Below are positions 27,046 through 60,606 of a DNA stretch of 64,000 bases, piece by piece. The translations under genes and the position numbers were made by a program. The notes beneath the pieces were generated by a model, which saw only the letters and a program-made list of their open reading frames with translations, was not told the DNA's origin and did no database searches. Each line of letters starts with the position of its first letter. The stretch's first letter is position 1. The DNA is from Acheta domesticus (taxonomy: Eukaryota; Arthropoda; Insecta; Orthoptera; Gryllidae): contig JAHLJT010000631.1 of the NCBI GenBank assembly GCA_031308135.1, forward strand, positions 177,574,667 through 177,638,666, in the 5' to 3' direction.

Positions 27046-27079
27046 AGTGGCGCGGCGCGGCGCGGTGGGGCGTGCGCAG

Positions 27080-31862: not shown

Positions 31863-31902
31863 CTTAACACAAAATATGCATGATTGCATGTTTTGTGTTA
31901 AG
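31863..31902. repeat. Perfect-arm hairpin, copy 1
   Basis: 18-base inverted arms (CTTAACACAAAATATGCA and its partner, one G-T type mismatch) around the loop TGAT. See the copy 2 hairpin, where the loop is ATCA. Confidence 0.8.
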
Positions 31903-33769
31903 AAACGAGCTTACATGGATTACAGTTTACAAATATTGTAAGCTGGACTAATTTATAATTGAAAATGCTGGTGAGCGTATGATTAATTGAATTAAGATTT
32001 TCGATGAGATGTCTAGAGATTTTAAGATCAATCGTGTGAGTTCCGAGAACGTGGGTGTCGCAGCTGCGTTGCGTGGAAGAAACGCGTGGGTTGAATTCGT
32101 GGTAACGCAGGCGGGCGGCCGCCGTTGGTTAATGCGCAATCTAAGGATACAGTCATGGCGGTACCTATTGCTACAATAAATGGTTAAATACAGAATTAGA
32201 ATTATTACTCGTTCAAGGCTGGGCTCCCTGCTCAATCCTTGAGTAATTTGTGGAGGTCGAAGGGAGTTCTCAGGAGGGTTTTTTAGGGTTCTCTGGTTTC
32301 TCCGCCTCATATTTCAGCAACTCAATTGTGATTTACCTCATTATCATTATCGCTATCATCTTATTAGTTCACCACTCATGTACCTCAAAATCCTCAGCAG
32401 TTGAAGAACACTCGAATCCCCAATAAATAATTGACATTCTTCTTTACCTACAAACCAAACGAATATCTGGATTGTGCTGTAATTCATGTCAGGAGAATTG
32501 CTTATTTCCATGAGAATCAATCGTGATCCCATTTTATCAAACAAGAAATTCATTTACAGTATTTTAAATCCTAGCGCTAAAAGAATTTATATGGACATTT
32601 AAACTTTTCATTAGGCAACGCAGTGCTTTAAATATCAACATATCGTGAATAACGAATCTAAATATTGCAATTATTAATTAAATTATTTATATTATTCTGC
32701 CCCACGCTGGGCAAGCATTTGTAACGAAACTCATTGCTTTCGCTTAAATTATTTGACCAATTCATTTATTAATTTTCTTTAAATTTGGCGGCTATTTATG
32801 ACTTCCTACTTTCTACTAATACGAAATATATTAGGAATACATTTATTACTTTCCCGTATACATACGTGTAAGTTGCAGCGCGTGTTGTGATTAGTGGACT
32901 ATAAATAATTTAAGGCAGGACCAATTTACACGGCACCTCACATCCTCGGGTTGCTTCTTACGTTGGAGGACCATAGCACAGATATCGCTTACTATACTGG
33001 AGCAATAACTGGCATGTAGCAAATTAGAGGCTCAATTGAATAAGTAAAGCACAAATGTCACGAGCACAACGATTGCACCATATTGGCGCAACATATAAAG
33101 ATCTGTACAAGTTTTGTACTGTACGTACGGTTATTCAGTCAAATGTAAGGTATTACGAAAAGTTACTGTCATAAGCAAAAGTACGACACTGTTGCGTAAC
33201 ACATAAAAGATTGAATTCTGCATTGTGCAGAGTATATTCAGACACAACTTGAATGCATAAAGTCACTGTAGTGGGACAGTAATGTGAAACACATATTGAG
33301 CAATGGCTTGAAAACGAAATTCTATGTTTTACACGCACAACAGTTCACTTGAAAATGTTTAAAGTTCCATACAACATGGTTGATGGTACTGAAATGTCGA
33401 CATACATAGTTGATGGCACTGACATGATGACACACACGTCGTATGACGTTGAACTATAAAGGAAAACTGAAAGAATTTTGCATACGCGCATGTATAACAT
33501 GTTGCAACGTGAAGATACTGAGTTAGAGTCGCACTCGTCCGCACATCGTGGCGACTAGTTCCCCGACTGCACTTGGGCTCCGCGCAGGCTGGCGCATGAG
33601 GGGCTTTGGCGCCAAAAGCTGGCGGCAGCCAATAGGCGTGCATTTAAATTGTAAATAAATTATAACTAAATTTGTTAGTTAAACAAATTACATGAAAAAG
33701 TAAGTTATTGAATATTGAAATATACAGAATATGCTTTGTGCAGTTAACTTTAAAATGTAATATTCAATG

Positions 33770-36365: not shown

Positions 36366-37365
36366 NNNNNNNNNNNNNNNNNNNNNNNNNNNNNNNNNNN
36401 NNNNNNNNNNNNNNNNNNNNNNNNNNNNNNNNNNNNNNNNNNNNNNNNNNNNNNNNNNNNNNNNNNNNNNNNNNNNNNNNNNNNNNNNNNNNNNNNNNNN
36501 NNNNNNNNNNNNNNNNNNNNNNNNNNNNNNNNNNNNNNNNNNNNNNNNNNNNNNNNNNNNNNNNNNNNNNNNNNNNNNNNNNNNNNNNNNNNNNNNNNNN
36601 NNNNNNNNNNNNNNNNNNNNNNNNNNNNNNNNNNNNNNNNNNNNNNNNNNNNNNNNNNNNNNNNNNNNNNNNNNNNNNNNNNNNNNNNNNNNNNNNNNNN
36701 NNNNNNNNNNNNNNNNNNNNNNNNNNNNNNNNNNNNNNNNNNNNNNNNNNNNNNNNNNNNNNNNNNNNNNNNNNNNNNNNNNNNNNNNNNNNNNNNNNNN
36801 NNNNNNNNNNNNNNNNNNNNNNNNNNNNNNNNNNNNNNNNNNNNNNNNNNNNNNNNNNNNNNNNNNNNNNNNNNNNNNNNNNNNNNNNNNNNNNNNNNNN
36901 NNNNNNNNNNNNNNNNNNNNNNNNNNNNNNNNNNNNNNNNNNNNNNNNNNNNNNNNNNNNNNNNNNNNNNNNNNNNNNNNNNNNNNNNNNNNNNNNNNNN
37001 NNNNNNNNNNNNNNNNNNNNNNNNNNNNNNNNNNNNNNNNNNNNNNNNNNNNNNNNNNNNNNNNNNNNNNNNNNNNNNNNNNNNNNNNNNNNNNNNNNNN
37101 NNNNNNNNNNNNNNNNNNNNNNNNNNNNNNNNNNNNNNNNNNNNNNNNNNNNNNNNNNNNNNNNNNNNNNNNNNNNNNNNNNNNNNNNNNNNNNNNNNNN
37201 NNNNNNNNNNNNNNNNNNNNNNNNNNNNNNNNNNNNNNNNNNNNNNNNNNNNNNNNNNNNNNNNNNNNNNNNNNNNNNNNNNNNNNNNNNNNNNNNNNNN
37301 NNNNNNNNNNNNNNNNNNNNNNNNNNNNNNNNNNNNNNNNNNNNNNNNNNNNNNNNNNNNNNNNN
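36366..37365. other. Assembly gap (1000 N)
   Basis: Exactly 1000 N, a placeholder size. The sequence resumes at the position homologous to 15503, so the gap is the junction between the two copies of the duplicated segment. Confidence 1.
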
Positions 37366-37627: not shown

Positions 37628-37689
37628 ATGATCGAACCACTTCCGGAAAGCGAGAACAACACGCACCCTGACTCAACGCAAACCCCAGA
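37628..37689 (+). CDS. Copy 2 exon 1 (start exon)
   Basis: ATG at 37628 with A at -3 and an in-frame TGA six bases upstream, encoding MIEPLPESENNTHPDSTQTP plus two bases. Strong donor GTAAGT at 37690. Phase 2 joins exon 2 to make a GAA codon. Confidence 0.7.
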
Positions 37690-40600
37690 GTAAGTACAGC
37701 ACAATGAAGATCACCGATTAGTCAAAACTTTTGTTATTTCCAAGGTGAAGTTTTGTGTTCTTGCCGTGGTAACCACTTGTTTATGTAGGCTTGTGAATAC
37801 AGATACATGTATTCTGAACTTACGAAGCGATTGATCACCTGATCTTTAAATCATTTCATCTCTTTTAACAATAAATAAAAATATTCATCTGTGAGGTTAT
37901 TTAACGTTATTTATTTGCAAAGTATTCCCTCAGAGATACTTTTTATAATGAATTTGAACTACCAACAAATTTTGAAAACCTGAAAGAACTACCAACAATA
38001 TTTACACGAACTTTTAATACTTTACAATGAACGTAGCCAGGATTTGTGTTAAGGGAGTGTAGTTGTTACGCATTACACATGTAATATTATTTTAAGGGAG
38101 TAAGTACTTTTATTCCAATAAACAAGTAACTATACAAAGTATTTTTTTACCGAAATGGGATGTGGTAGATATATTTCGTTTGTTTGAGTCTTTAAACTTA
38201 TTACCAAATTTCTAGGGCTGATTTGGCAAGTTTTCAATGATGTATTTGCCCATGAACTGTATCTTTCGGTCTGAAAACATCTCGGCTAATCCAGGCCAAA
38301 ACATAGAAACAAACACACTTTTCAAAAATGCCTTGTGCGTTTTATTGTTCAAAGGCCAAATTTAAACCAGATTTATTTATAAATATCTTTAGTAGTTTCA
38401 ATGATTTCTCTACCTTAATACCCAGAACCTACACATTTACGGTTAAAGAAAAATATTGAAACTTTTTTGAAAATAATTGGTTTTCATTTACGAATTTTAC
38501 AGCGGTTTAGCCGATCTCCATGCACCAACCTGGTTAGAAATAGGTTATGCATTTGACCCAACTGACACCACAAAAAAGTCAAGAAGGAAATTGTAATACT
38601 ATTTTGTCGATTACTTTGTTTCTACATTATTCAATTTCAAACAATGTATGTTTTTATTCAAATTATTTTAAAAAATATTAATTTTTTCTGACTCTACCAT
38701 CAACCCATATTCTAATGCCTGTCACAAAATGAACGAGAGATAGAAGGAGAGTTTAATTACTCAAGCAATGAAAATATCTTTCGTCGAATGCTTCAAGAAG
38801 GCGTAAATGTGATGATGTTTTAGGACGACTTAAAGAATTACACTACCATAAAAATCATTGTACATCTCAAAATTATACATAGTGATTACGGTATTTACGT
38901 GAATCTAATGCGCACCCCACATTTGAAACTTAAAGTTATGAAAAAAGGGTTTGTAACGAAAGTAATGCGCATTAATGACAGAAAAATAGGTACGGTATTT
39001 TATTTATATTTATGTATTATCACAATAGATTTAACGTATACATAAATCATCAGATTATAGAATTGAAAGTTTCTCAATGTTGGATGGCGCACTGTTAAAT
39101 AAGAAAACTAGTGAACGTGAAATAAGGAAAGTACGCATTCAAAATGAATGTATTAATAAAATAAATTACAAGAGTGAATCTCCATCATTCCCTTCGGAAC
39201 GGATGTGCATTCGCATCTAATACGCCGTCGAATCTAATGCGCACCACGGTTTTGAGAAATACATTTGGTAAAAAAAGGTGCGCATTAGATTCGCATAAAT
39301 AAGGTTTACCTAAGAGTAGATGAGTTTACTTTCCAAATTTAAAAATATGGAAATTTCAAATACGATTGTGGAAACCAAAATGTTTCAGACCCACAACTGC
39401 AGATACTAAAGAGGATGACGCGGACGATGCTCCTTCTGACCCTTCAGACCCTTCTAATTTGTTCTTCAAGAGAGGGGCGCGCGAAAAGTTTGATTTTGAA
39501 CGGCTTCGAAATTTGGTGCATGTGGACATCGACAGGCCGCCTGAAGAGCCCCAGGAGAAACGAGAACCCGTTATTTCAAAAACGCGCCTCAAACCCATTG
39601 TATCTGAACCTCGTGCACGGTCGAGGTTCCAGCTTTGGGTGCAGTACGTGGAGAAAGAGAAAAAGGAAGAGAAAAAGAGGATGAAAGAGAGGCGGAAAAG
39701 GGAAGAAGAAAAACGAAAGAAGGCAGAGGAGGAGGAGGAAAAGAAGAAAGCCTCACTAGTGGAGGAAGAATTGCCCTCTTCTAAAAGCGAGGAGTCGAGT
39801 GAAGAGTCCGCAAGCAGCAGTGATTCAGGAACAAGTTGGTACGATATCAGTTCCAGCGGGCAGTCGGATTCCAAGGCCAATTCTTCACATTGCTCAGATA
39901 AAGGTAAATATTTTAGAAGTATGAGATATATTTGTGTTATCTAATACATAAAACTCAATGTTTTTTTTTATTTTATGCGCTGCTATACCGTTCATCCCAT
40001 TGCGATAAAATTGTATCAACTTATTGCTTGCACTTGCGCGAAGAATATAGGCTTAGTACAATGGGAATGTGCATTAGTCTGTCGTAGGTAGACGCGCGTA
40101 GATGATTTTTTACCTTTATGCCGACTGAACTGAAGGCCCTGACAGCCCCTGAACAGAACCCCTAAGCAACCCGTCGCACCCTCAAGTATTAAGCGCGTCA
40201 TTGTTGCATATACTGCCCATGCTATTGTGAAATATCGGTCGGAATTATTACTTGAACGTTATTGGGGATAAGTAAATAAAATTTCTCTAAGACAGCGATG
40301 TAGTGAATGCATGTCCAAACTAGAGGGAGAACGTTTTAACAATAGGATACTTCCCAACCATGTCCAAAAAGGAACAAGAACAAGCCCATACTCGCGAGAA
40401 AGTCTTAATATGTTTGCAGAGCGTAGCGTAAAACGTAATTAACATGCATGTGACCAGTAATGTGTTGCCGGGTCCATTGGTCTACACTACAAATTCCCAA
40501 TGCGCTCAGAAATTGAAAGAAAACTGTGCAGCCTCCGACCATGTCAAAGGTGTCTGTGGCTTCATTAGATACCGTAGAACTAGGGAAAAATATAAAACAA

Positions 40601-43600
40601 TGATGCAGTTTCAATTTCACTGAAAAATACAATCATTTGATTGTGTTAATTCGCCTGTTCTCATACTGCGACTACCGACTAAATTTGCGTAATCAGTGCC
40701 TCACTACTTGCGACACAGTTGACGGTATACGTCTGCAATGATTGAAGGAAGAGGTCTCCCGCCATTAAATATTTGCTGTTCATGTGTTGCGTTATTTTTT
40801 GTTAATATTATTAGTATACAACGAAATGTACTCATATATACTATTCTAGCAGTAGTATTCGTGAACATTGTTGTCGATAAATTAGTTCATTTATTGCAAC
40901 GTCACATGGCAGTATTTTATTTGAGGTCCTTAATCAGTGTGCATGCAACATGTTGGAAAAATTTGTTATGTGGTTTTGTTTAGCAGCATTTTTTCTTCTG
41001 TATGCCAGTAGTTTTTGATAATTTAAGAAAGAAATTCACGCTAACCATTTGGGACACACTGGCGTAGTGTTGGGTTTAATTAGCTGATGTCCTAATCGAT
41101 GAACATGATTCACATAAACAATGAACACCCAGGAAAGAAGGAGCAAGGATTTAGAATGCGAAAGATTGAGTTACGGATTTGTTTACAGTGAAATCAATTA
41201 GGTACATTAAATTATTGATGGATAAAGTAAATTGTTTACAAGATTAGAGAGGGGAATGAAGTTAATAATTATGGCGCATTCATGTCCATGACAGGTAATC
41301 GACCTGACATTATTCAGAGGGCTATCTTTGATAGTCACTGATTAATGTTTTCACCCAAGTATTCCCACGCGTATGTAATGATAAAGGTTCGTGATAAGTA
41401 CTGCCGACCTCAGAAATATAAATTTTATACGTAAATAACACGAATGGATAAAAAATGTTACCTCATTACTCGTAGTTTGGATATTTAAGGAAGTGACATA
41501 ATATTGATTTCTATTGAAACTAAATAATATTACACTTCACATTGTTGCTATTATGAGTGATGTAGCATTTCCTCGGAAACAAAACTAACCTCATCCTCCT
41601 CGGTTTTGGTAAGTTTGGTAACCTCATCCTCCTCACTTTTAGTTTTGGTATCATCACAAGAGCGTATCAAACATACCTAATATGTGCGAATGAGTTACCG
41701 TGATCAATAATATTTCGAAGGACAACTCTCATTTAATACTATTCTATTCAGAGCCAGATTGACATTTATGTGGGGACTCTGGGGAAGTACGTTGTAGAGC
41801 AAGGACGTTAGAATATAAATAAACTAGACTCACTGAGAGCGCCGCTGTCGCGGAATAATTTGAAGCCATCGCTGTAGTGAAAACGTTCTTACCTCATAGA
41901 CATCGTTGCGACTGGTAGAAGCAACTTCATTGTTTAGAATAAGGATTTGTTCTTTGCGGTGCGTGTGTTATTTAACTGTATGACAATATACTTGATATAA
42001 TAAGTTTGTTGTCTGGCATATATCAAGTGCACAAAGAAATGCATTGTCCCAAATGCAAATTCAGCATACAAGTTCGCACAGTTTGACTCTTCAGAACGAA
42101 TTATTACGAGAACATCTGCTATATTTCATCCATATACAGCTAATATTTTTTTCATTTTGTACTTTTATTTCTGTTACACTCACCCCAAAACAACTATACT
42201 CATGAAAACGAGGGCAATGCAGTGTCAGATTTGAAACCTGCGCGCTAAAGATCCATTACAATGGCGGCCACTGCCCCTTCCCATTTATCCTGTGTCCTGA
42301 ACTGTCCGTCCTCGGAATCGTAGGGGTTCGTTATGGAGGGCAATTAAAACACAAACGTATTTTTTCATAACGTTTTCTATAAATAGGCATTCATGTTCCA
42401 TTTTCTTCATGTTATTCACGTGTAATACATTAGAAGTTATAAATATTACGTACTAAATTGCTCAAAAATTTTCTGATAAACCGTACTCTATTATAAAACT
42501 AATCGCTCTATCTTTTGATATTAAATATTTCTTCAATACGATTTAAAAAATGCCGATTATTTTAATGAGGCATGGATTAATTATGCAACCCAATACATAT
42601 TTGTTTAAAATATTACAACTCGACTAATTAGTAACTAATGATGATGGCCCCATATGTTGCGACCTTTGGACAACCACTTGTCAGCCCGGTTTAAATCCGA
42701 CCTTAATGTAAATAGAGCGACCCTTGAAATTATATCGAAATTTTACTATTCATTCTATTCTGTAAAGGACGCTGACGTAAATAATGGTTGCGAGGAGGTC
42801 ATGATCTGTACGAATATTAATAGCTACTAATTATTGTGAATTATTTATTATGATAGTACGTTGGAATATTAACATTGTAAATAAATGAAGATTTTCATAT
42901 TGTAAAAGTATTACAATACTTATTCCGAAAATAACCAATATGTTTAAATACATTGATGATTTTACTTGATTCTAATCTCGTCTGAATATTTTGGCCTATA
43001 TCTTCATCACTGATTGTTATAGTATTGTAATACAATATTTCAATATGACCCCAATTAAAACTGTGTAACGTAATTAATAAGTATAAACAGAGCTAGGAAT
43101 TTTAGGTGCAAAACTGAAGTGAAAACGTTGCAAAAGGTTGAGGGAAGAGGTTGAAATTTCAAATGTAAATATTCAGGCAAACAGTACCAAAGGCAATTAC
43201 ATCACATACAAAGACAAAATTCAATAACTCTGCCTTAAGCAAGAACCAGAACACATTGTTATTGTATTAAGGTAGCAAGTCCAGTTACTGTTGTAACGAA
43301 TAACATTTGATGTTTCAATTTTTTTTTCATTGCGAATGAATCTGTAGTAAGCAAAATGAAGAAAAAATGGGGAAGCTGGAAGAGGAACTCCTGTCATTTG
43401 AACAGTTTGTTTTATTATTGTAAGAATAAAATGCGAAAAACGACAAAAATGTAAAAAAAGTGCAAAAGTGTAAAGACGTCCAGGAAAGGTGTAAAAAGGT
43501 GCATGCATTGAAAAAAAGTGCAACTAAAACAGTCAGGTGTATTTATTTCATATTACCTTTGAAAGATAAATTCATCTGGACGTCGTAAAATGGGAAAACG

Positions 43601-46600
43601 GGCTGCAATGGCTTAGGGCGTCAATTGATGACTGCAGTGCCTATGAGCGGGAGTTCCTTGGATTCGAGCCCCGAAGGAGTCACGATTTTCACACAGGTTA
43701 GATAACTAGATGGCTAGATAGCTAAGTCGAATAGAGCCGTTGTCTGGAGGAGAATTGTAACGGTCGGCTATTGTGATTGGTAATTTGCCGTACTGCTCCG
43801 GTCAACACCAGGCGATGCCGGAGCAGTACCCTAGCAAACGGACCAGGGACCGCGAGCGAATTTTCCTTCCTTATCTTTGTCCTATCCTCACTCCTTATTT
43901 ACACACACACACACGAAATACATTACCATACATGTCGGAGGATCAGTCGAGAGGTAAAAGCTTGTCCCGCAGGGAGACACCTGGCGAGGGAAAATCCTGC
44001 CAACCGACGTGTAGGTTGGCGCTGGATATCACTGTTTAGCGGGGGAAGAACACCGCCACATCCCGTGATAAAATCATTCTTGCGGAACCAATGACCACAG
44101 CCGTAGACGCGCCCGGAAACACGAACTAATCCTCACTATAAAAGGGAAAACAATTAAAGGTAGCACCTTAAGTTTCTTATGATGGGTAGGAAGCACCTAA
44201 AGATGCTGAGAGATGGCTCAGTGATGCAACTGATGTCACTGCATTTCCTCTGACCGGTAGGCCCTAGGTTCGAGTCCCGACGGCGGCAGGATTTTCGACA
44301 CTTGCCTTTCAGCTAAATCGAGTTCTGTCGCAGTCTGGAGGAGAATTCTAGCGGCCGGCTGCTCTAATCGGTAGTTTTCCGTGGTTTCTCCGGTCATCCG
44401 AATGCCGGAGCAGTACCCTAACAAACGGGCTAAGGACCGCTCGCGATCTTTCCTTCGTCTTCCTTGTCTCTTACACACTCACTCACACTACCATGCACTA
44501 CAGACCGTTCGGGAACTTAGAGTTTGTCCCGGCTGGGGCGGTGCTCCGCTCGTGGGAGATACCTGGTTACGGGAAAACCCGCTAGTCGACGGTAGGTCGG
44601 CACCGGATCTCACCATCCAGCGGGGAAAGATCACCGCCACCGCCCGATGAAAATCATGCACTACACGTACGGGACTAATGACCTACTGTAGCTGACGCGC
44701 CCGGAATCACGAACAATCAATGAAAGCGCAGCACCAAAAGTTGCTAGCTCCGTTTGTAGTCAGGGACTGAGTGGAGCGGCCGGCGTGTGCGCAGGGGAGG
44801 GCGCTGGCGCGGGGGCGGGGCGGGAGCGCGAGCGGGGCCGGGGGTCGCCGGCGCCGGCGCTGTCGCCGCGCGCGCTGCGCCGCGTCTTCCGCTCGCCCAG
44901 CGACTTCGCCGAGCGCGCGCGCCGCTTCCGCGCCGAGGTGCGCCGGCGCCGCGGCCAGCGCGTGTGGACGTGGGAGGCGCTGGTGGCGGCCGAGCCGCAG
45001 CCGCTGGCGCCCGCGCTGCCCGCGCCCGCCAGCCAGGAGCGCGAACGCAGGCGCCAGGCCGACTACGCCCCCGACAAGTACGCCTCCCTTCTTGGTGTAT
45101 TCTCAACGGTTGTCTCATTCCTGTTGCTCTCACACAATCGCTCTTCCTTTTATTCTCATTCTTCTGTATGGCTTCATCTCACCTTAGTGCAGTACATGTA
45201 TGTCACGTTGCATTTCTTCTGCCTGGTTTAAAACTAGAGGGGATAAAACAATACGTACTTTCTCGTCCGTATTTTCAGGCAAAATCCTTACTGCTTCAAA
45301 CATAAATCTGAACTGAGTTGTCAAGGTAAGTGGTAGAGCAAGTTATTACATCGTCTGCAGTTCACTGTTCCGCACCAACTCCCTCCTCTAATCAATGGAG
45401 AAAATCGGCTAAACTGTTTAGCCGTTAGTGTTGCCCACAGATGGACGGACTGACAGACATGTTTTGCCTTCATTCGATTTTGCTGTATCAAGAACTCACA
45501 AAACATGGATTCTGGCTATGCCACGTATTAGAGGATTTTGTTTCTAAATTTAACAGCTGAATTTATCCACTTTTTCTTTATCAGGGCCCTCTAATGAGAG
45601 TTTTCTTCCAAAAATCCGCCGTTTTTTCGCGCAGCATTACGTAACTTTCTCTCTACTTCGTAGCGAGGAAGTAAATTATGACGTCAAGAAATACGTCCTA
45701 AAATTACACAAGTATTTTATCATCTATAGAAAAAACAAAGTGTGACAAGCTAATTGTAATTAATGAACGCTCACAAATAAATTGTAGATTCTATGAAAAT
45801 ATGAATCCTTTTAAAGATAAATCTCTATTTTACCGAAATATGCAAAATATGCGCATATAATTACATGAATATGCACTTATAGGAAAAATCACCAAGAATG
45901 CTCTAATTTCGTAGTCCATATAGCATCCAATACTAACCAAATGTCAAGAAATTTCACTTAGCTATACACTGAATCAATGGACAAAAATATGCAAAATCAT
46001 AGAAATCCGCTCCCTAATAATCTTCGACTTGATCTTCATCTTCTTTTTCATCATCATCACCACCTTCTTCTTCTTCAACTTCATCGTCTTTATTTCCACG
46101 TACTTTGTTTTTTAGTTTTCCTTCTATTTCTTCCTCTTACCAGCTGTGTCACCCCAACTTTCGTCCGAGTGACCATGACGCCCTAGTATTTCTTTCAACT
46201 TTCCTCGTATTTTCCAACATGTTGAAGCGTTCTTTAACTTCATTCCAATCAAATATTAATTAGTATAAATTAATGTACACGACCACTGCCAAATTGAATA
46301 ATTTTGTTGCGCAGGAATTTTATGTTCAAGGTTATTAAATTAGCTTTAAAACGTGGATGTGTAAAGCAGTGGATGATTTTTTGTCGATGTGGTAACGTGG
46401 ATCAGTGGTGTCAAGGTCCCCTACTGGTGCCAGTGGTACGCCTCTCGGCACCGGGTCATACCATTCGTCGTGGCACTCGTGCCGTAGACTCCTGCTCGTG
46501 GCGTCGACCTTGACAACACCGAGTGCTTTAAAGCATTGATGAGTCAAGCAGTGGACGGTTTTATGTCGATGTGTTAACATGGGTATTTCAATTTCGAACT

Positions 46601-49600
46601 AGGCTGCACTGGATCTCGAAGGGCGTGCGGCGTGAGATGCGCGAGGACGTGCGTCGCTGCGAGCAGACGCTGCGCCAGCTCGAGCGCGTGCAGCGGCGCC
46701 GCCGCGGCCGGAGCTCCTCGAGCGGCTCGCCAGCCAGCGCCGGCGCCAGCGCCTCCCCGAGCGCGGACCGCTCGAGCGCGCGCACGCGCATGCGCACGCC
46801 CTCGCGCGCCGCCACCTACGACGTGGACGCCGCCCCCGCCCGCGTGGACGCCTCCTCGGACACCGACACCGACGCCCGCGACGCCGCGGACAGCGCCTGC
46901 GCCAGCACCAGCGTGCTGTCCTTCAAGCCGCCCACCAAGAGCGTCTTGCTCAAGAACGACGCGTTGACCCAGCTCATTCGCGATCTGCGCGGGAAGGCGG
47001 CCGTGAGCTACGAGTTGGAGACCGGCTCGTCGGGCCCCTCCAGCGCCATGGACACGACCTCTGGGGAAGACGAGAGCAAGATGTCCATCAAGGAGCAGGT
47101 GCGGAAAAAGATTCACCGGACGAAATCGGATATCAACCGCAACCCCGTGCCGCAAGCGACCTTGCTCAGAGCGAGGCTGCGGGCGGAGAAGGCGGCTCAA
47201 GCCATGGAGGACATTACGGCGTGCGGGGCGTGCCTTGCACCGAAGGTGACCGCCGCGAAGGTGGGGAGGTGGAAGATCGTGAAGCAGCCCGCCCCGAGGC
47301 CGACGGCGTCCCACCGCACGATCAAGGACTTCGACGCAGTCACCTTCGGCCGCCGGTCGCCGCCTGCGACGCCGTCGCCACCCAAGCCTGAACGAGATCT
47401 TCCCAACGCCAAGGCGAAGGCGAAGGCTGAGAAGCAGAAGGCCGAGAAGGAGAAGGCCACGTCGGAGGCCGGGTCGGACGAGGAGGGGGACGGGGACGGG
47501 GAGGCGGAGAAGGAGTACGGGACGGTGCCGGGGAAGAAGCCGCGCGCGCAGAAGAAGAAGAAACGCGCGCCGCCCAGGAACCCCGTGCCGTGCGCCACCG
47601 AGGGCCGCGCCCGCGCGCGCGTGCTGGCGGCCGGGGCGCGGCGCCAGCGCCTGGAGGAGGACCTCCGGCTGCGCATCAGCGACGTGGGCGTCCTCCAGGC
47701 GGCCGGCTGCGAGGACGTGCCCGCTGTTGTGGAGGACGACGACGCTGGCGCCGGCGCCGCGCCGCTCGTCCGAAGGATCGGGGCCAAAGGTAGGCATCGG
47801 GCAGCCTCAATTGTATCTCATTAAAATATCTTCATGAAGGTTATAATGGGTTAACGTCTTTTTCTAAGACACACTTATTAAAACTTTATTGTGTGTAAAG
47901 GGGTCATGTGACCCCTTCAATGACAGTTGTTTTGAAATGCTGTTCTGAAGGGGTCATTCAATATAAAATTGTTTCTATTGTTGGCCACATCTCATGACGG
48001 AATCGAATCTAGTGCTGGTTTGCTTTAGTGATTAAGACACTGGTCTCGGAATCTAACAGCGTATGTATCGAGGAGTAGGACGACTGCATTTCGAGAAATT
48101 ACACGTACGAGTGCTCACACGGTTTGTCAAGGAGTGATGACGCTGAAAGAATTATTGTACTTGCCAAAATCAGTGTATGAGTTGCATACCAATTAGGAGC
48201 ACATGTGAAACTTCGTTTTGATATTTCCCATCACATGTTCGTGGTCTTCGATCAGCCAAATGAAACATCCTCACATCTTCGGGCTTCCTGAAACCTTCTA
48301 AGCAGATACATTCAATTTAACACAACTCTCTCAGAATAAATGTCACAAACTTCTCTGACATTTGCTGGAAATGCTCAAGAAGTTTGTAACATTTATTCTG
48401 AGAGAGCTGTATACTATTGAACGCACCTGCTTACGACGTTTCATGTAGCTTCAGTGCTTTCCAGAAGTGAAGCAGTCAAAGAGTGCTCACGCAGTCAAAG
48501 AGAATTGTTGTACTTGCCAAAATCTGTGCGTGAGTTGCCAAGCAATCAGGGGCAAATTTTTCATGTTAAACTTCAGTTTGAGATTTCTCACCACATGTTT
48601 GTGAAGAAAATGGAACCATCTTCGACTCCACTAAAAGTCCGAGAAGTTTTTTTAATTAGGTCGCATTAACATCAATATTATTAGCGACCACTACTGGGTT
48701 TAACGTTATGTAATTATATGGTGATGACAGGGGTGAAAGTACGTGACGAACACAAGTGCAACCATGCCCGATGCGAGACTCGAACCCGCGATTTTTGGGT
48801 CCGATATCGCTATGACACTACTGCCTCAACGATCTCGGCCACCGCGGATCGGCACTAAAAGTTCGAGAAGTTTGTAACATTCATTCTGAGAGAGCTGTAT
48901 TGAATTGAGGAGGTTCGATGTAGAACGAGTGCCTTCCCGAAGTGAGTGGCGCGGCGCGGCGCGGTGGGGCGTGCGCAGCGGGGGTGCCGGGCGGGGGCGG
49001 CGACGCGGCGCGCGTGCGGCTGCCGCCCATCGCGGGCGCGGCGCGGCCGGCGGGCGACCTGGGCCGCGTGCGCTCCATCTTCGACCAGCAGCTGGCGCGA
49101 CGCGACGCCCCCTCGCCCCCGGCGCCGCCGGCGGGCGACCGGCCGCAGGCCGACGCCGAAGCGTGGAGGAGCAGCTACCCACAGGTCAGCCACGCCCCCA
49201 ACACCTCACGCGTGTTGGTCAAGTGGAATGCGCATGTTTAATAATTGTAACGTATTGGCAAGCGAACCTCGTGGTAGCTATTTGGGCATGGTCGGAAAGG
49301 GATCACTAACAGGAAATCGCCTCGCCAATCAGGAAGAGAAAGGTGCCATAGAGAAAGCACCCAAAGACTGAACAAAGGGCAGGCCATTTCAGAGGCAGGG
49401 CGGGGGAGGCGGCGTGTCGTAGGTGGTCACGTGAGCCTCCAGTATATAAGAGAGTACACAAAGGGAATGGGCGGGTTCTAGAGTAGGAGTGAGGACCTCG
49501 TGCTGATGCACAAATTTGCGCCAGGGAGGTGCAGCGGCGAGCGGGGCTCGTGAGGCAAGTCACGTGTTGACGCGCCTGCGGGGACTTTGTGTCCCAGATG

Positions 49601-51865
49601 TGACTGCGGTCACGTAGAAGTGATGCTGTGTGCGGGCTCCGAGTGAGGTGTGGTTGAGATCCACCACTCACACATCAATCGGTTAAGATCGCTCATGCGA
49701 TCAAGGCATACCACGGATTGATGCGCCTGTAAGGACTTGGTGTCCGAGTACGACATCCGGTCACGGAAGCTGGGCTTTGTGCGCGCTTCGAATTAACGAG
49801 TGGCGAGTGCTACTAGTTAAATCGATTCTCAATCGGATTTGGGATCGCTCCCGCGATCAGGGGATAGTAGAAGGTCTATCAGAGCGATTGTATAAAATGG
49901 AACCATTTAACTGTACATATTTGTTTGTAAATATAACTATATATGCAAGCTCTGTGTCTGTGTTCGCTGTGAGTACCCATGACGTCACATAATGTAGACG
50001 TATTCAATAGTCGTCATGACATGACAGAAAATAAACTGTATCTGTGGTTTCTGTGTAAAATACGTTGCAAATTTCTTTGATATAAACTATTAATCGCGGA
50101 GGTCGAAGGCCGTAGCCTTGCTGTCGATTTGGAAATGCTCAAGGAAAGGGAGTCAAAAGAGCCGTATTAAATAGACAAGTTTCTTAATAAGAAATCACTT
50201 TGCCATACGAAATTTTAACTTAACCCAGCTACCTTAGCAAATTTTTGAACCATCATCCATGCCATTCAATATGCATATAATTCCATTCATTTATTCATTT
50301 GCTTTAGCTTTCTTTTAAGAATGAAGAAAGAACTTGCTTCTTGTTTCGCCCACTTTGTCTCGCCCATCTCGTCGTGCTTTATGGCAAAGCAGTCAGGGTA
50401 CTTGGAAATCAGATGCACCTCGGTGAGAGAGCGACGAACAGACTAACTCTTATCTGAGTAAAATTTTTGCGGAGGCTGAATTTAAGGGAAGGGGAATTTT
50501 AAAGTTTCTCAAAACTACCCATATGTATCCACCGTGTTTTAAGTGGGGCTGGGGAGTTTCTTGCTCAAGGCACTTTCAATGGATTCTGGAAATCCAGAAG
50601 TCTTTCGAACTAGGGATGCGACTTCGATGTTTTTAAAGAGACATTGATATTTTAAAAGATCGATACATTTCAATCGATTTTTATATTGATGTTTGTGCTC
50701 GATATTTTTACGTTTCCGAAGTTTTGGTTGAGAATGAAATTCCCATTATCAAATTTTACAAAAGTTAAAATACAAAATAATAACTGATGGAACAACTGAC
50801 AGTTCCATTCAAACGAACGCAGTTTTTACTATCATAATCGAACAGACCATCTCTGGTCCGAAATGACCCCAATGAGTATTTCCTATGTCTTTCTTTGTAT
50901 ACTTGGTAACATCGATGTCTTGTTGTGAATGTCGCATCAGTATTTCAAACCCACTGCAAAACTCTTTCCAGCTTCACTTTTGCCGTTCACTTTCATGTAA
51001 GAACATTGGCAGTGAGAAAATAGTCGTGAAGCTTGAAAACATGCACCACCAAAAGAAATTAGAAAAATGGAATGGAGATGACAATTTGCAACGGAGGAAT
51101 ATTTGTTGCAAGATTTTGCCATTAACATTCGGATTTTATTATGAAAATATAGTGTCGGAGTGTATCAGAAAAAGCTCATAACAATTATTTGTATTTATAT
51201 TCCTAATTAAGAAAAAATAATGAGGAATTATTGTTTGTTATATGATTCATTATAAATTGTTTAGCGTAATTTCATTCATTTAATATTTTCTTTGAATGGA
51301 GAAATTAAAAAAATGAGTTATATTGCAGTCTAATAAGTGAAGATTAGCCGTAAGACTTTTCCGATGCGGAATCTAATTTATTTTCAGTATATTTTATTTA
51401 ATGAATACTGTTAAGAAGTCTCCTCCCAATGTCATGAATGGCAGAATGGGTAGAAATAATCGGCAAACGCATTCATTCAGACTTGGAAAAGTTGCTTCAA
51501 GACAGGGATTTGTATGGCACAGCCCGCGAAGTGAGGATGTGTGATGCAGATGCATAAACGGTGCTGCGCTGATGCAGGGGCGGAAGGCGCGCGAGGCGGC
51601 GGAGGCGGCGGAGTCGGTGGCGGCGGTGCAGGCAGCGTTGGCGGCCGCGAAGGCGGTGCACGAGCGCGACGCGGAGGGGGACGAGGATGGGGAGGCCGAG
51701 GAGTACGTTCTGAGCGACGACGCCCTCTGGCCGTCGGGGGCCCCGCCCCCCGCCTTCGTGCCCCCGCCCCCGCCGGCGCCGGCGCCCGCGCCGCCCGCCC
51801 TCGTGCGCGCCGCGCGCTCCACGGGCAGCGGCTTCGCGGCGCCGCGCCGCCCGCCCTTCCGCTGA
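37628..51865 (+). CDS. Unrecognised six-exon gene, 846-residue charged protein, copy 2
   Basis: Coding exons 37628-37689, 39389-39903, 44795-45077, 46603-47789, 48979-49184 and 51578-51865. All introns are GT-AG and phases match (2, 1, 2, 1, 0), giving one open frame of 2541 bases. Residues 1-45 are acidic and rich in D, P and T. About 107-148 is a K/E-rich predicted helix or coiled coil, and 150-190 is serine-rich and acidic. Residues 193-290 are arginine-rich with a VWTWEAL motif. Exon 4 opens with a helical HWISKGVRREMRED block and later has a KSDINRNPVPQ segment and an A/K/E stretch. The C-terminus is acidic (EEYVLSDDALW), then proline-rich. There is no signal peptide, membrane segment or family I recognise. 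It is probably intracellular and largely disordered; no function is proposed. AATAAA follows at 51953. Confidence 0.75.
38889..39304. mobile_element. MITE in intron 1, copy 2
   Basis: Same element as at 17000-17410, with the same inverted GAATCTAATGCGCACC ends and internal sub-repeats. Confidence 0.65.
39389..39903 (+). CDS. Copy 2 exon 2 (K/E-rich helix and serine-rich acidic stretch)
   Basis: Acceptor TGTTTCAG ends at 39388; donor AAAG then GTAAAT. Encodes residues 22-192: an acidic start, an EKFDFERLRNLVHVDID block, a long K/E/R helix and an E/S-rich tail ending near SSHCSDK. Base composition is moderate, unlike the very GC-rich exons that follow. Confidence 0.8.
39904..43586. other. Intron 2, unique part, copy 2
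   Basis: AT-rich intron sequence (homologous to 18007-21686 in copy 1). A small tandem repeat of CCTCATCCTCCTC occurs at about 41590-41640. Short ORFs here are not supported. Confidence 0.6.
43600..44139 (+). mobile_element. tRNA-headed SINE (intron 2, first), copy 2
   Basis: Orthologous to 21700-22239, with the same flanking AAAATGGGAAAAC / AAAAGGGAAAAC duplication (43587-43599 and 44140-44151). Confidence 0.8.
44203..44727 (+). mobile_element. tRNA-headed SINE (intron 2, second), copy 2
   Basis: Orthologous to 22303-22821. Flanks GAAGCACCTAAAG (44190-44202) and GCAGCACCAAAAG (44728-44740). It ends 67 bp before exon 3. Confidence 0.8.
44795..45077 (+). CDS. Copy 2 exon 3 (GC-rich, arginine-rich)
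   Basis: Acceptor GTGCGCAG; chosen because it is the only nearby AG that accepts phase 1 and keeps the frame with FRSPSDFAERARRFRAEV and VWTWEAL. The donor at GACAA-GTACGC is not a strong consensus, but its phase 2 is what exon 4 needs. The alternative GTGTAT donor further on gives the wrong phase. Confidence 0.65.
46009..46245 (-). pseudogene. Possible decayed ORF in intron 3 (acidic tail)
   Basis: On the minus strand, one frame encodes WNEVKERFNMLENTRKVERN (about 46237-46178). Another encodes an acidic run with EVEEEEGGDDDEKEDED ending in a stop near 46017. A WxxVxxRF start and an acidic tail would fit a MADF/Myb-like transposon-derived protein, but stops and a frame change separate the pieces and simple sequence could explain the tail. 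The same remnant lies at about 24113-24345 in copy 1. Confidence 0.2.
46603..47789 (+). CDS. Copy 2 exon 4 (largest exon)
   Basis: 1187 bases open throughout. Starts LHWISKGVRREMRED, then Ser/Ala/Thr-rich low-complexity sequence, VLSFKPPTKSVLLKNDALTQ, KSDINRNPVPQATLLRARL, MEDITACGACLAPK, GRWKIVKQ and an A/K/E-rich stretch. Donor AAAG then GTAGGC. The equally long open frame on the opposite strand is a by-product of high GC. Confidence 0.8.
47898..47917. promoter_or_regulatory. Inverted GGGTCA pair, copy 2
   Basis: AAGGGGTCA-TG-TGACCCCTT, unchanged from copy 1, with a third half site at about 47948. Confidence 0.25.
48299..48433. repeat. 56-bp inverted arms in intron 4, copy 2
   Basis: Arms 48299-48354 and 48378-48433, orthologous to 26401-26535. 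Core arm sequence CTCTCTCAGAATAAATG pairs fully here, whereas copy 1 has one mismatch in it. Confidence 0.65.
48650..48852 (-). mobile_element. tRNA-derived SINE in intron 4, copy 2
   Basis: Orthologous to 26752-26953. Target duplication starting CACTAAAAGT at 48629-48649 and 48853-48873. Confidence 0.75.
48979..49184 (+). CDS. Copy 2 exon 5
   Basis: Acceptor GTGCGCAG, donor CCACAG then GTCAGC, phase 1 to 0. Encodes a Gly/Ala-rich start, VRLPPIAG, then GRVRSIFDQQLARRD and a proline-rich part ending SSYPQ. Confidence 0.75.
49246..49989 (+). mobile_element. Solo LTR in intron 5, copy 2
   Basis: Orthologous to 27347-28089. TGTAACGT...ACGTCACA with TAAT at 49242-49245 and 49990-49993, so the insertion predates the split of the two copies. 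TATATAAG lies at 49443-49450. Confidence 0.7.
51578..51865 (+). CDS. Copy 2 exon 6 (terminal, with stop)
   Basis: Acceptor GCTGATGCAG. Encodes an alanine-rich helix (AREAAEAAESVAAVQAALAA), an acidic EEYVLSDDALW block, a proline run and a basic RRPPFR end before TGA 51863-51865. Confidence 0.8.
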   Translation, partial: GRKAREAAEAAESVAAVQAALAAAKAVHERDAEGDEDGEAEEYVLSDDALWPSGAPPPAFVPPPPPAPAPAPPALVRAARSTGSGFAAPRRPPFR

Positions 51866-52941: not shown

Positions 52942-54068
52942 TGTGACGTACCGACTGCTCGGGGTCAATCGTGACTTACCCGTGAAGTGGCACGGTACAA
53001 TAAATTTGTTTGTTTCAGGCAGGGCTCGGGATCTTTTTTCGCGAATGTGGACCCTGGGATGTTCGGGGTACAATAAATACATACAGTTTATTATACAACG
53101 ACAGTTTGATGTTTATTCATCTAATATCACTATTACACTTTCGAACACTGATCCCCTATGCAATGATTACTATGTTTTGGTACCAAAACTTAATACCTTC
53201 AATGCTAGCATCATACCTGTTACCACCTGAGTCACGTCGCTTCGTTGGGGCCCGGCGCCGATGGTGGCGGCGGCTTCGGCTCCCGTCGCGTGGTCCCGGA
53301 GCCGTTCGGCCCCCGGCCGGAGATGAGTAGGCAAGTGTTCGCCCCTCACGCTGCTCCACGCGTATCTTCTACACTAGTGCATCTAATTAACTTATGCTTG
53401 TCCTGACAGTCTGAACTCCAGATTTGGGTTGTAACTGATTATGCTAAACACGTTATACTATATTATTCTCTGAATCACCGGTGAAATATCGGTAACCTAT
53501 ACCCACGTGTTCTTGTTCTCCTCACGCGTCATCATACAGTTTCATTATGGAAAGTTCCTATACACTGAAAACCCGTCAGACACTGCTTGATCGGTCTCAC
53601 AAATGATCACTGGTTCAGTCACTGTCTTGTGCATTACACATTCTATCTTTCCCCAAAACCTACGTTCGCGATGCATGTGCTCACGCTACAGGCGGGTTTC
53701 ACACTCTTCGGTTTACCATACACTCTATCCGTTGACTTCCCAATGCTGTTCGGTCTGCATCACACTTCTTTAACTGTCCGAAATGTAATACTATGCAAGT
53801 CTATTAAGTTATTCAGCACTTAGGGGTACTTTTCCCCAAATAACTCGCACCGCTCGCGCACCACCTCCGTCCGCTAGCGTGGCTTCCGCTCGTCTCCCCT
53901 TCTCAACCGACTTCTCGCTGTCCTCCCCTCGTGTCTCGCGCTCCACGTAGCGCCCCCCTTCCCCTCCGTGTTGCCATGCTGCCTAGTTATGCTCGCGCCG
54001 TTTGTATGTTCTCTGGTTGTTTAAGTTGAAATGTATCGCGTTTCTATTTAGAGGCGCGGTGCGTTTCA
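52942..54068 (-). repeat. 3' LTR (1127 bp)
   Basis: Same sequence as 60607-61734 except C6 instead of C7 at about 53953-53958. Reading on the minus strand it begins TGAAACGC and ends GTACGTCACA. Candidate AATAAA signals on the minus strand lie at 53087-53092 and 53112-53117. Short ORFs in the LTR are not genes. Confidence 0.97.
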
Positions 54069-54088
54069 TTACCCCCCTCCCCCCTTTT
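54069..54088 (-). promoter_or_regulatory. Polypurine tract
   Basis: Minus strand AAAAGGGGGGAGGGGGGTAA abutting the 3' LTR, the primer for plus-strand DNA synthesis in LTR elements. Confidence 0.9.
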
Positions 54089-54196
54089 ATTTGGATTTTT
54101 CTCCGCAAAATTCAAGGACTTACATTGGTTTTACTAACTTGACACTTGGGGTGCGATGACTCTCCCTCCACAACATGGGTCTCCGCCGATGTCGTC

Positions 54197-57100
54197 TTAA
54201 CTCTCCTTGTTTGATGGACATGGTCTCAGATTGTAGAAATTGTAGTGTCCCACTACTTCTTGGCTTTCATTGACTAGTTTGGCAACATTGGTGTTTACTA
54301 TTTGGTCGATGATATATGGTCCCTCATATAGCGGGAAAAACTTCGCGTATAATTTTAATTTTGGATTAGAAACTTTAGGCACGCGTAATAGTACTGTCTG
54401 CCCCTCACTAAATTCATATACTTTCTTCTTCACTTTTGCCTTCCTTTCATCGCCCGCTTGCACCAAATTTTGTAGTATGTGTTCCGACGTTCTCGGTGGT
54501 TCTTCCTGGGTTATTTCCTCTCTCTCCAACGCATACAGTATATGGGGTGGTTTCCTTTGAAAATGTGCTTCCCATGGTGTCATCCCAATACTATCATGCG
54601 GAATCTGGTTCAACCAGCGATTAATGTCAGGTATCAATTCATTCCACTTCCCATGGTTCTCACTGCAATACGTCCTAAACAATCTTGATAATTCTTTCAT
54701 TATTCTTTCTGATGGGTTTGATTGCGGGTGTCTTATCGTTGAATAGATAGGTGTCGCCCCCATGTTTTGGATACCTTCTTTCCACCTCTCGCTTGTAAAC
54801 ATCGTTCCGTGATCGGACAATATTCTTTTGAATGATCCCGCACATTGCATGAATCTTTTCACCAATTTTAAGCAACTTCTTGAATTGATTTTGTTTACTG
54901 GGTATACCTGGACGAATTTTGAAAATACGTCCAAAATGACAAAAATGTATTTATTTCCCTTCGTCGTACGAGGTAACGGTCCGTATGCATCCAGTGCGGC
55001 CAGCTCATTCTTCTCTCTTGGGATGATATGCTGCATTGGCCCGTCGTATTTGCGATTAGGGTATTTAGCCTTGAGGCATGTGATACACGAACTTATCGAT
55101 CTTCTGATTTGTCTTCTCATCCCCTTCCAGTAACAGAGGGATTGGATTGTTTGAAATGTTTTCTTAGCGCCAAAGTGTGCTAGTGATGTATGTACAAATG
55201 TAATCAGTTCACCGGTACAGTCTCGGGGAATCCAAATCCTCCATATCTCTGGTTCTTCCTTGGTTTTGATCAATACCGCTCCCTGCACTACTTTCCAGCG
55301 GTGTTGTCTTCTTCTCAGTGCTTCTATGTGTTCGTCGTCTTCATCTAATTGTCCTTGTTTGAATCGTTTTACCCTGTGAATTTCATCGTCCCTTTCTTGT
55401 AAAGTGACCAGATCGTTCCAATCAAATAATGGTGACCTGGATATACCTAAATCAATCGCCATTACTTGAAACCCTCTTGCGTTCGCATGTCTCGCCTCCC
55501 TACCCGGCTCTTTACGGCTTAGTAAGTCCGGCAAGTGGTTGTTGATTCCCCTACAATATTCAATGTCAAAGGAATATTCTTGCAGGGCTATCACCCATCT
55601 GTGTAGCCTATCATTCTGCAAGTGACATCTACTCAAGAACGTTAATGCCTGGTGGTCTGTACGCACTTTGAAGTGTCGACCTTTCAAGTATGGCTTAAAT
55701 TTTGATATTGCCCACACTACAGCGTTTGCTTCCTTTTCTGTTGCTGAGAACCGTAATTCGGGTCCCTTTAGAGTTCGGCTGATGATGGACACTATTTTTT
55801 CTTGGCCATCGAACACTTGATATAGCATGGCCCCAATTCCAAAGTCGCTACTGTCGGTTTGTACGATACATGTTTTAGAAAAATCAGGATGGGCTATAAA
55901 ACAACTATTATAGAACATGTCCTTGAGTCTGTCAAATGCTTCTTGGTATTCGTCGTTCCATTTCCATTTCTGACCCTTTTTCAGTAATTGGTAAAATGGG
56001 TACATAACGTCTGAAAATTGTGGGCAAAATCTTGAATAGTAGTTGCAGGTGCCTATGAGTCGACGCACCTGCTTAACTGTTCGAGGTGGTGGCAAGTTCC
56101 GGATTTCTTCCGCGGTCTCTGGTTTCATGCTGATCCCCTCAGTTGATATAACATACCCGAGAAACTCAATCTTTTTAGTGAACCACGTTGACTTCTTCAA
56201 GTTGAGCACCAAATTATTTTCTTGTAAAATCTGGAACAGTTCTTGCAAATCTTGAAAATGTTGATCGATGGATCCTGCCTGCACGACAATATCGTCCACA
56301 TATGTCGTTACTCGGTTCGGCATCCTTCCTTGTATAATCTGGTCTACACATCGAATCAGTGCTGCTCCGCTGTTTCGTAACCCAAACGGTACTCTACAAA
56401 ATACGTAGCATATCCCTTCAAATGAAAATCCAGTATATTTCTGGTCTTCTTCGGCCACCTTCATCTGCCAGTAGGCCTTGCTGAAGTCGGTGCTCGAGAA
56501 AATGATGCTTCCCCCAAATCTCTGTAGTGCTTCTTCTACTGATGGTGGTGCATCCCTAAATGGTAGTGTCACTGCATTTAGTCTCCGAGCGTCTAAACAT
56601 AACCGTAATCCTCCGTCCTTCTTTTTCACGATTACCATAGGATTCGTGTACGATGTTTTTTCTTTCTTAATGATACCATCGTTCACCATAGATGCTAATA
56701 ACTCCGCTACTTGTTGTCTCAGTGCGACTGGTATTGGGTAATTCCGTTGCTTGAATGGAGTGTAGTCCGTAAGTTGAATACGGAATTCAAACCCCTTGAT
56801 TGGCTCTCGATTCTTCTGAAATACTTTCTTGTTTTCTATTAATATTTCTAACAGTCTGGATCTCTGCTGATCTTCCAGTGCTTCTGCCTGGTTGACTTGT
56901 TGTCGTAGTTTTTCTTCTATTCCCTCTTCCGATAATACGCCCGTACATGCTTCAAATTCCTCTTCCTTCCCCATATCCATCTCGATTCTTTGGTATCCTA
57001 GTTCTATCACTTTGCGGTCGAGGTCAATAATCGCCCGTTGTTCAGATAAAAAGTCTGTCCCTATGATCGTTGGATATAATAACTTCTTCACAACTAGAGC

Positions 57101-57598
57101 TACTATCTCGTACGCCTGGTCGCCGATTTCAGCTTTAAACATGATTTGTTTCGTAATAGGGCTTGACTTCTTTTGAGTTGCTCCTATCACGAATGCCCTA
57201 TTCATGGGCAAGCACATTACTTGCTTTCCTTTCGCAATTAATTCATTGTAAAATTCTTCTGATACCACTGTTGTAGTACAACCAGTGTCGACCAGTGCTT
57301 CTGTTACCACCCCCTCACATTCTATTTTGATCGTGGGACATTTTCTCATGCGAACTTCCGAACTTTTCTTCCTCTGCCACGGTTGTGATTCATAAGATAC
57401 CGACCGAATCGTGTTGATAGGGACCACATTCAGTTCTTCCTTCCTTGTGTCCGTAATGGGGTCGCCTGTCATCACGGACTCTATCTGTTTAAAGATGTTC
57501 CCTGTCCTCCACTTGGGCCAGGCCGTGCTGATTGATTGGGCGTCCCTTGGTTCGTTCCTCTCTCTTCTTCTCGACGGTTTGGGTCTTGTCCTCTCCAT
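54197..57598 (-). CDS. Pol polyprotein: protease, reverse transcriptase, RNase H, integrase
   Basis: The listed frame has 1133 residues from its first ATG, but the protein is expected as a Gag-Pol fusion by -1 frameshifting at 57487-57493. Aspartic protease: ALVDTGCTT, catalytic D near residue 104. Reverse transcriptase: about 280-490, with LRLCLDARRLN, VPFGLRNSGA and the YVDD active site near 433-436. RNase H: TDSS near 581 and TDHQ near 648. Integrase: H-x4-H near 803-808, C-x2-C near 838-841, then catalytic D870 (ALDAYGPLP), D929 (LSDHGTMF) and E964, a 34-residue D-E spacing, one short of the usual 35, in an HPQSNPSER motif. The chain ends at a stop 128 bp before the LTR. No chromodomain is recognised. 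All domains look intact. Confidence 0.97.
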   Translation of the reverse strand: MERTRPKPSRRRERNEPRDAQSISTAWPKWRTGNIFKQIESVMTGDPITDTRKEELNVVPINTIRSVSYESQPWQRKKSSEVRMRKCPTIKIECEGVVTEALVDTGCTTTVVSEEFYNELIAKGKQVMCLPMNRAFVIGATQKKSSPITKQIMFKAEIGDQAYEIVALVVKKLLYPTIIGTDFLSEQRAIIDLDRKVIELGYQRIEMDMGKEEEFEACTGVLSEEGIEEKLRQQVNQAEALEDQQRSRLLEILIENKKVFQKNREPIKGFEFRIQLTDYTPFKQRNYPIPVALRQQVAELLASMVNDGIIKKEKTSYTNPMVIVKKKDGGLRLCLDARRLNAVTLPFRDAPPSVEEALQRFGGSIIFSSTDFSKAYWQMKVAEEDQKYTGFSFEGICYVFCRVPFGLRNSGAALIRCVDQIIQGRMPNRVTTYVDDIVVQAGSIDQHFQDLQELFQILQENNLVLNLKKSTWFTKKIEFLGYVISTEGISMKPETAEEIRNLPPPRTVKQVRRLIGTCNYYSRFCPQFSDVMYPFYQLLKKGQKWKWNDEYQEAFDRLKDMFYNSCFIAHPDFSKTCIVQTDSSDFGIGAMLYQVFDGQEKIVSIISRTLKGPELRFSATEKEANAVVWAISKFKPYLKGRHFKVRTDHQALTFLSRCHLQNDRLHRWVIALQEYSFDIEYCRGINNHLPDLLSRKEPGREARHANARGFQVMAIDLGISRSPLFDWNDLVTLQERDDEIHRVKRFKQGQLDEDDEHIEALRRRQHRWKVVQGAVLIKTKEEPEIWRIWIPRDCTGELITFVHTSLAHFGAKKTFQTIQSLCYWKGMRRQIRRSISSCITCLKAKYPNRKYDGPMQHIIPREKNELAALDAYGPLPRTTKGNKYIFVILDVFSKFVQVYPVNKINSRSCLKLVKRFMQCAGSFKRILSDHGTMFTSERWKEGIQNMGATPIYSTIRHPQSNPSERIMKELSRLFRTYCSENHGKWNELIPDINRWLNQIPHDSIGMTPWEAHFQRKPPHILYALEREEITQEEPPRTSEHILQNLVQAGDERKAKVKKKVYEFSEGQTVLLRVPKVSNPKLKLYAKFFPLYEGPYIIDQIVNTNVAKLVNESQEVVGHYNFYNLRPCPSNKES
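57449..57479 (-). promoter_or_regulatory. Stem-loop downstream of the frameshift site
   Basis: Minus strand GTCCGT (57479-57474) pairs perfectly with ACGGAC (57454-57449), starting 7 bases after the slippery heptamer. The loop segment GACCCCAT (57463-57456) can pair with ATGTGGTC (57429-57422) at 7 of 8 positions, which would form an H-type pseudoknot. Inferred by hand; not folded with software. Confidence 0.55.
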
Positions 57599-60604: not shown

Positions 60605-60606
60605 AT

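What the first reader, a model, noticed from the sequence alone, without database searches (positions are those of the whole stretch)
37628..51865. A complete, unrecognised six-exon gene can be assembled by hand with all five intron phases matching
ATG 37628 to TGA 51865 joins six exons with phases 2, 1, 2, 1, 0 and no internal stop in 846 residues, followed by AATAAA. Phase agreement at five junctions is hard to get by chance. The product is charged, low in complexity, and matches no family I know; it may be lineage-restricted.
Basis: partly seen in the sequence, partly recalled or inferred. Interest (0 to 1): 0.75.

Follow-up and report, generated by a model that had tools for sequence, protein, structure and literature searches.

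The report
Insect gene falsely copied by assembly
The hand-assembled gene is probably a real but ordinary insect gene for a mostly unstructured, highly charged protein; it appears twice in this window (three times on the chromosome), most likely because pieces of both parental copies were left side by side in the assembly.

Summary
In detail: ATG 37628 to TGA 51865 joins six stop-free exons, phases 2,1,2,1,0, 846 residues. The argument for it does not: with free choice of AG and GT, 11,125,980 of 665,333,760 six-exon chains are stop-free, and 35 chains give exactly 846 residues. A gene is still likely: the four GC-rich exons (44795-51865) have third-position GC 0.92-0.98 in the chosen frames, and splice dinucleotides are kept wherever two further copies cover them. 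A seventh, symmetric exon (38503-38592; 876 residues) is possible but weak.

15503-33319 repeats 37366-64000 at about 93-98% identity, and a third copy lies 54 kb upstream. The contig ending before one 1000-N gap and copy 2 starting after the other are base-for-base adjacent in copy 1. These are most likely unmerged alleles and overlapping contig ends, not tandem paralogues. Copy 2 carries a young LTR element (52942-61734) absent from copy 1.

No family or homologue was found, but I had no control that these libraries cover insects, so 'lineage-restricted' is untested.

The parts
37628..37689 (+). exon 1, start ATG, ends in phase 2
   Evidence: donor AGA|GTAAGT in the best 4% of GT sites of 37366-52000; no indel in copy 3, one 1-base deletion in copy 1
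   Evidence: good acceptor (best 7%) but weak donor (best 42%); 5 substitution sites in 90 nt over the other two copies, 3 of them nonsynonymous, and a 1-base insertion in copy 3; may be a cassette exon or no exon
   Evidence: donor AAG|GTAAAT in the best 0.2%, acceptor unremarkable (best 45%); no substitution in copies 1 and 3; three 1-base deletions in copy 1, none in copy 3
44795..45077 (+). exon 4, GC 84%, GC3 0.98
   Evidence: acceptor choice uncertain; indels in copies 1 and 3
46603..47789 (+). exon 5, 1187 nt, GC3 0.92, the largest coding block
   Evidence: copy 3 open without any indel, copy 1 with seven 1-base indels
48979..49184 (+). exon 6, GC3 0.96
   Evidence: no indel in copy 1, indels in copy 3
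51578..51865 (+). exon 7 (last), ends TGA; proline-rich C-terminus
   Evidence: AATAAA at 51953; three 1-base indels in copy 1; copy 3 does not reach it
15503..33319 (+). copy 1 of the same locus; exons 1-5 at 15766-15826, 16615-16704, 17495-18006, 22889-23179, 24701-25890; exons 6-7 at about 27079-27284 and 29678-29966 (reckoned from the offset of the GC islands)
   Evidence: 98.3% identity to 37366-51334, 92.9% to 51332-52941, 96.6% to 61735-64000; exon places; 16 indel events in the exons
36366..37365 (.). 1000-N gap at which copy 2 begins; scaffold seam
13835..13934 (.). 100-N gap; the contig with copy 1 starts right after it and its first 14.7 kb match the end of a contig about 54 kb upstream
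52942..61734 (-). Gypsy-type LTR element in copy 2, absent from copy 1: LTRs 52942-54068 and 60607-61734 (99.9% identical), gag-like ORF 57481-59256, pol-like ORF 54197-57610, 4-base target duplication GTAG
   Evidence: the naming of gag, pol and the class rests on reading the ORFs, not on a domain search

Best explanation
A single-locus nuclear, protein-coding insect gene on the + strand, made of six or seven exons over about 14 kb. It encodes a strongly charged, probably mostly disordered protein (876 aa in the seven-exon model, pI about 9.5). It appears three times on this scaffold because alternative haplotype contigs and unmerged contig overlaps were placed side by side: one allele was cut just before 37366 and other contigs were inserted between two 1000-N gaps. 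Shown: the sequence, the base-exact seam, the codon-position signal of exons 4-7 and the conserved splice dinucleotides. Inferred: false duplication as the cause, expression, exact exon borders, and cellular role. My best guess for the role is a basic, flexible binding or scaffold protein, probably nuclear because of the KKKKR cluster in exon 5 (a motif recalled from general knowledge, not tested); I give that about 0.25.
For: Four GC-rich exons show GC3 above GC1 above GC2 in the frames of the model (GC3/GC1/GC2 0.98/0.86/0.69, 0.92/0.66/0.57, 0.96/0.85/0.69, 0.96/0.84/0.67; p 1.6e-4 to 3e-28). Splice AG/GT is kept at every junction that copies 1 and 3 cover. Of 25 exon substitutions over the copies, 12 are synonymous against an expected 27% (one-sided p 0.02). 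The exon-5 protein matches only this locus, at three places, in the 2.33-Gb genome (6 matches, 105 of 121 candidates scored). Seam: the contig before the upstream 1000-N gap ends ...TTTACAATTAT and copy 2 after the second 1000-N gap starts AATGC..., and these are consecutive in copy 1. Copies 1 and 3 are the closest pair by substitutions (0.31% against 0.87% and 0.94% to copy 2), and the matching stretches are one contig's end and another's start. The copy 1 contig matches copy 2's contig again over its last 158 bases, up to the gap, at 98.7%. Of 88 gaps between copies 1 and 2, 68 are single bases, 41 of those in runs of three or more. Twin copies of Cpn60/TCP1 exons on other scaffolds look like the same fault (not followed up).
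Against: No transcript data and no reads. Exon substitution rate (20 of 2624) is not significantly below intron rate (108 of 11517; p 0.43). Exons 1-3 have no significant codon-position signal, so the exon 3 to exon 4 join could fuse two genes. Copies 1 and 3 have the most gap openings of the three pairs (68, against 36 and 52), differ at 3 sites and one indel in the possible exon 2, and copy 3 has indels in exons 2, 4 and 6, so they may be two haplotypes or carry many errors. A 39-kb contig without a match of 400 bases or more elsewhere in the region lies between them, which simple overlap does not explain. Copy 1 and copy 2 lack a match over 1.9 against 4.3 kb at their right end. Several acceptors of the GC-rich exons are poor in pyrimidines.
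Confidence: 0.75

Rival explanations
1. True tandem segmental duplication: three paralogues, of which copy 1, and perhaps copy 3, is decaying by frameshift.
For: Three copies at 96-100% identity over 1235 bases within 77 kb on one scaffold; copy 1 carries frameshifts; an unmatched 39-kb contig lies between copies 3 and 1.
Against: At each left border, and at the right border of copy 3, one of the two matching copies stops at an N gap, and the outer contig end continues base-exactly into copy 2. Copy 2 has an LTR element with a clean empty site in copy 1. Indels fall in introns as well as exons.
Confidence: 0.12
2. Two genes: exons 1-3 (moderate GC) belong to one gene and exons 4-7 (GC-rich) to another; the first reader joined them.
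For: Sharp change of GC3 between exon 3 (0.51) and exon 4 (0.98), with a 4.9-kb intron between them. The frame of exons 1-3 is not supported by codon-position GC.
Against: Exon 3 has a donor in the best 0.2% of GT sites and its phase fits exon 4. I did not search for a separate start or end signal between them.
Confidence: 0.25
3. Not a gene: GC-rich islands whose open frames arise by chance and are chained by free choice of splice sites.
For: 11.1 million stop-free chains exist; antisense is open as well; no homologue found.
Against: Position-specific GC in the chosen frame in four islands; excess of synonymous changes and kept splice dinucleotides.
Confidence: 0.08

Closest known systems
False gene duplications from unmerged haplotypes (Genome Biol 2022, PMC9516828; only the search listing and the start of its abstract seen)
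   Same: Near-identical copies of one locus side by side in an assembly, differing at allelic level
   Different: Here an allele was cut and other contigs were placed in the cut, with a base-exact seam; probably insect, whereas that paper treats vertebrates
Uncharacterised intrinsically disordered, charged proteins of arthropods (general knowledge, no call)
   Same: Low hydrophobic content (0.18), charged runs, low-confidence model (mean pLDDT 53.6 for exon 5 folded without an alignment)
   Different: No sequence relative found, but insect coverage of the searched libraries is unknown

Membership tests
False (haplotypic) duplication in an assembly | Copy borders coincide with contig ends | tested here: met
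   (194-kb numbering): borders at 12278, 13279, 44629, 83935 and 107366 lie on N gaps in one of the two copies; the copy 1 to copy 2 match breaks at 104328 and resumes for 158 bases up to the gap at 106365
False (haplotypic) duplication in an assembly | Pieces rejoin as one allele | tested here: met
   contig end and copy 2 start are consecutive bases of copy 1
False (haplotypic) duplication in an assembly | Lowered read depth over each copy | not testable with these tools
   no reads available
Protein-coding gene | Frame-specific codon composition | tested here: met
   for exons 4-7 (4 of 7); not significant for exons 1-3 (3 of 7)
Protein-coding gene | Excess of synonymous over nonsynonymous change | tested here: inconclusive
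   12 of 25 synonymous against 27% expected, p 0.02, but the copies contain likely sequencing errors
Protein-coding gene | Spliced transcript | not testable with these tools
   no RNA data
Known protein family (Pfam, NCBIfam, PDB) | Profile or sequence match above cut-off | tested here: not met
   best Pfam E 0.67, best PDB E 0.11, NCBIfam none for a 154-aa core only
Lineage-restricted (orphan) gene | Absent from related insect genomes | not testable with these tools
   no other insect genome was available; searches found nothing, with no positive control for insects

The most novel reading that the evidence does not exclude
A fast-evolving orthopteran orphan gene whose 3' exons have been driven to 72-84% GC with GC3 near 1 while its 5' exons stayed closer to the genome's composition, encoding a new disordered nuclear scaffold protein.
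Probability: 0.12. Interest if true: 0.45.

Novelty: new member of a known kind. Interest (0 to 1): 0.22.

Why it matters
The useful outcome is a warning. In this assembly, gene copies side by side, frameshifted 'pseudogenes' and apparent tandem families can be artefacts, and here one seam can be located to the base. The gene itself matters only if transcripts and orthologues show it to be new.

Tried and rejected
Phase agreement as proof of the gene: rejected. Lower exon divergence as proof: not significant. Homology by full length, by a core region and by exon 5 alone: nothing at E 0.001, 1 and 1; only the 7985 and 7990 candidates sharing most words were scored, there were 772 candidates. 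Fold of exon 5: mean pLDDT 53.6, 212 of 396 residues below 50, so no fold search was made.

High GC3 as unique to this gene: partly rejected. In 11 further GC-rich islands of the neighbourhood, open frames picked for the largest contrast reach third-position GC of 0.84 or more in 8; because the frames were picked that way, this is a loose comparison. Against it, 19 of 30 Cpn60/TCP1 loci of the same genome have GC3 of only 0.12-0.36. The 11 dropped were nine with stops inside and two near-equal twins; one search had read minus-strand loci in the wrong direction and one search replaces it.

Part of the output was cut, and its exon 7 row for copy 3 was a spurious match (copy 3 ends before exon 7); I used instead.

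Species: 11 large scaffolds were seen among the matches and the genome is 2.33 Gb in 6511 contigs. PMC10136058 (passages seen) reports 11 large scaffolds and 2,346,604,983 bases for Acheta domesticus; PMC11911027 (passages seen) reports 11 chromosomes for Gryllodes sigillatus. The species stays unproven. A paper search for the exact base count found 0; one on cricket GC3 listed 5 papers that I did not read.

Full report
Observation. The ATG follows an in-frame TGA, and AATAAA lies at 51953. So the description is right.

Is it more than chance? The phase argument is weak. With any AG and GT in generous margins of the same five open blocks, 11,125,980 of 665,333,760 chains are stop-free; in a narrower list 35 chains have exactly 846 residues. 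GC-rich DNA is open by itself, as the 410-aa antisense frame shows. Better evidence is codon-position composition: exons at 44795, 46603, 48979 and 51578 have third-position GC of 0.98, 0.92, 0.96 and 0.96 against 0.57-0.69 at the second position, in the frames of the model. The other three (37628, 38503, 39389) show no significant signal, but the 39389-39903 exon has a donor in the best 0.2% of the region. Between the copies of the locus, 12 of 25 exon substitutions are synonymous where 27% is expected (p 0.02), but exon divergence is not significantly lower than intron divergence (20 of 2624 against 108 of 11517, p 0.43). Splice dinucleotides are kept wherever copies 1 and 3 cover them. I take the gene as likely and the exact chain as provisional. 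A 90-nt symmetric block at 38503-38592 would fit as a further exon (876 aa).

What the surroundings show. The window holds the locus twice: 15503-33319 matches 37366-64000, interrupted in copy 2 by an LTR element. The window lies at C392:177574667-177638666 of a 2.33-Gb assembly, and a third copy lies 54 kb upstream of the first. In the 194 kb read around it (its own numbering from here), one contig ends at 12278, a 1000-N gap follows, other contigs fill 13279-106365, a second 1000-N gap follows, and copy 2 starts at 107366. In copy 1 the bases matching 12278 and 107366 are neighbours: the first contig ends TTTACAATTAT and copy 2 begins AATGC, copy 1 reading TTTACAATTATAATGC. The simplest reading is one allele cut in two with contigs of the other allele placed in the cut. 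Inside the insert, the end of one contig (29874-44629) and the start of another (83935-98678) are 99.1% alike, as unmerged overlaps would be. At the right end the match of copy 1 to copy 2 breaks at 104328 and resumes for the last 158 bases up to the gap (98.7% to 139333-139490), with 1.9 kb against 4.3 kb unmatched between.

What does not fit so neatly. Substitutions are 0.31% between copies 1 and 3 and 0.87-0.94% to copy 2, but copies 1 and 3 have the most gap openings (68, against 36 and 52). 22 substitution columns have copy 3 alone as the odd one, 17 of them in the first 2 kb, and 15 have copy 1; this may be a switch between haplotypes, a third haplotype or error. The 39-kb contig between copies 3 and 1 has no match of 400 bases or more in the rest of the region, so its placement is unexplained. 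Copy 1 has 16 indel events in exons; copy 3 has none in exons 1, 3 and 5 but some in 2, 4 and 6. Of 88 gaps between copies 1 and 2, 68 are single bases, 41 of them in runs of three or more, as long-read error would give.

The LTR element (window numbering). 52942-54068 and 60607-61734 are 99.9% identical direct repeats flanked by GTAG, and copy 1 has the empty site with a single GTAG. It is young and absent from copy 1. It was described, not altered.

Identity. No Pfam, NCBIfam or solved-structure match above cut-off. Three searches of a large protein set found nothing, but I had no positive control for insects, so absence says little. In its own genome the exon-5 protein matches only this locus. 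The single-sequence fold of exon 5 has mean pLDDT 53.6, with helices at 2-36, 117-137, 162-179, 184-211 and 333-366; disorder is therefore inferred, not shown. Composition of the 876-aa model: 161 K/R, 138 D/E, hydrophobic fraction 0.18, pI 9.5.

GC contrast. Exons 4-7 stand at 72-84% GC in a 40% GC window, whereas 19 of 30 Cpn60/TCP1 loci of the same genome, those without inner stops or near-equal twins, have GC3 of 0.12-0.36. Some GC-rich open frames of the neighbouring contigs also reach GC3 of 0.84 or more, though those frames were picked for contrast, so the contrast may not be unique to this gene.

Verdict. A likely ordinary, uncharacterised gene in a stretch that is most likely falsely duplicated. 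Interest is low, and the value lies in the assembly warning.

Noticed in passing
52942-61734: Young Gypsy-type LTR element on the minus strand with long open gag-like and pol-like frames; 4-base target duplication GTAG and an empty site in copy 1.
   Followed up: partly
C2935:211259-226179 and C2935:362833-377396; C1565:37728712-37761318: Cpn60/TCP1 exons occur as near-equal twin matches on the same large scaffolds, suggesting more false duplications in this assembly.
   Followed up: no
L013-L015 and L016-L021 (194-kb numbering 47251-69520 and 143391-193510): Further GC-rich islands, some with high third-position GC; two downstream ones (148621 and 193161) read like thyroglobulin type-1 repeats (recalled motif, not tested).
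   Followed up: no
52366-52941: Divergence between copies 1 and 2 rises to 9.8% (56 of 571) just before the LTR element, against 0.3-3.7% in the other 1-kb bins.
   Followed up: no
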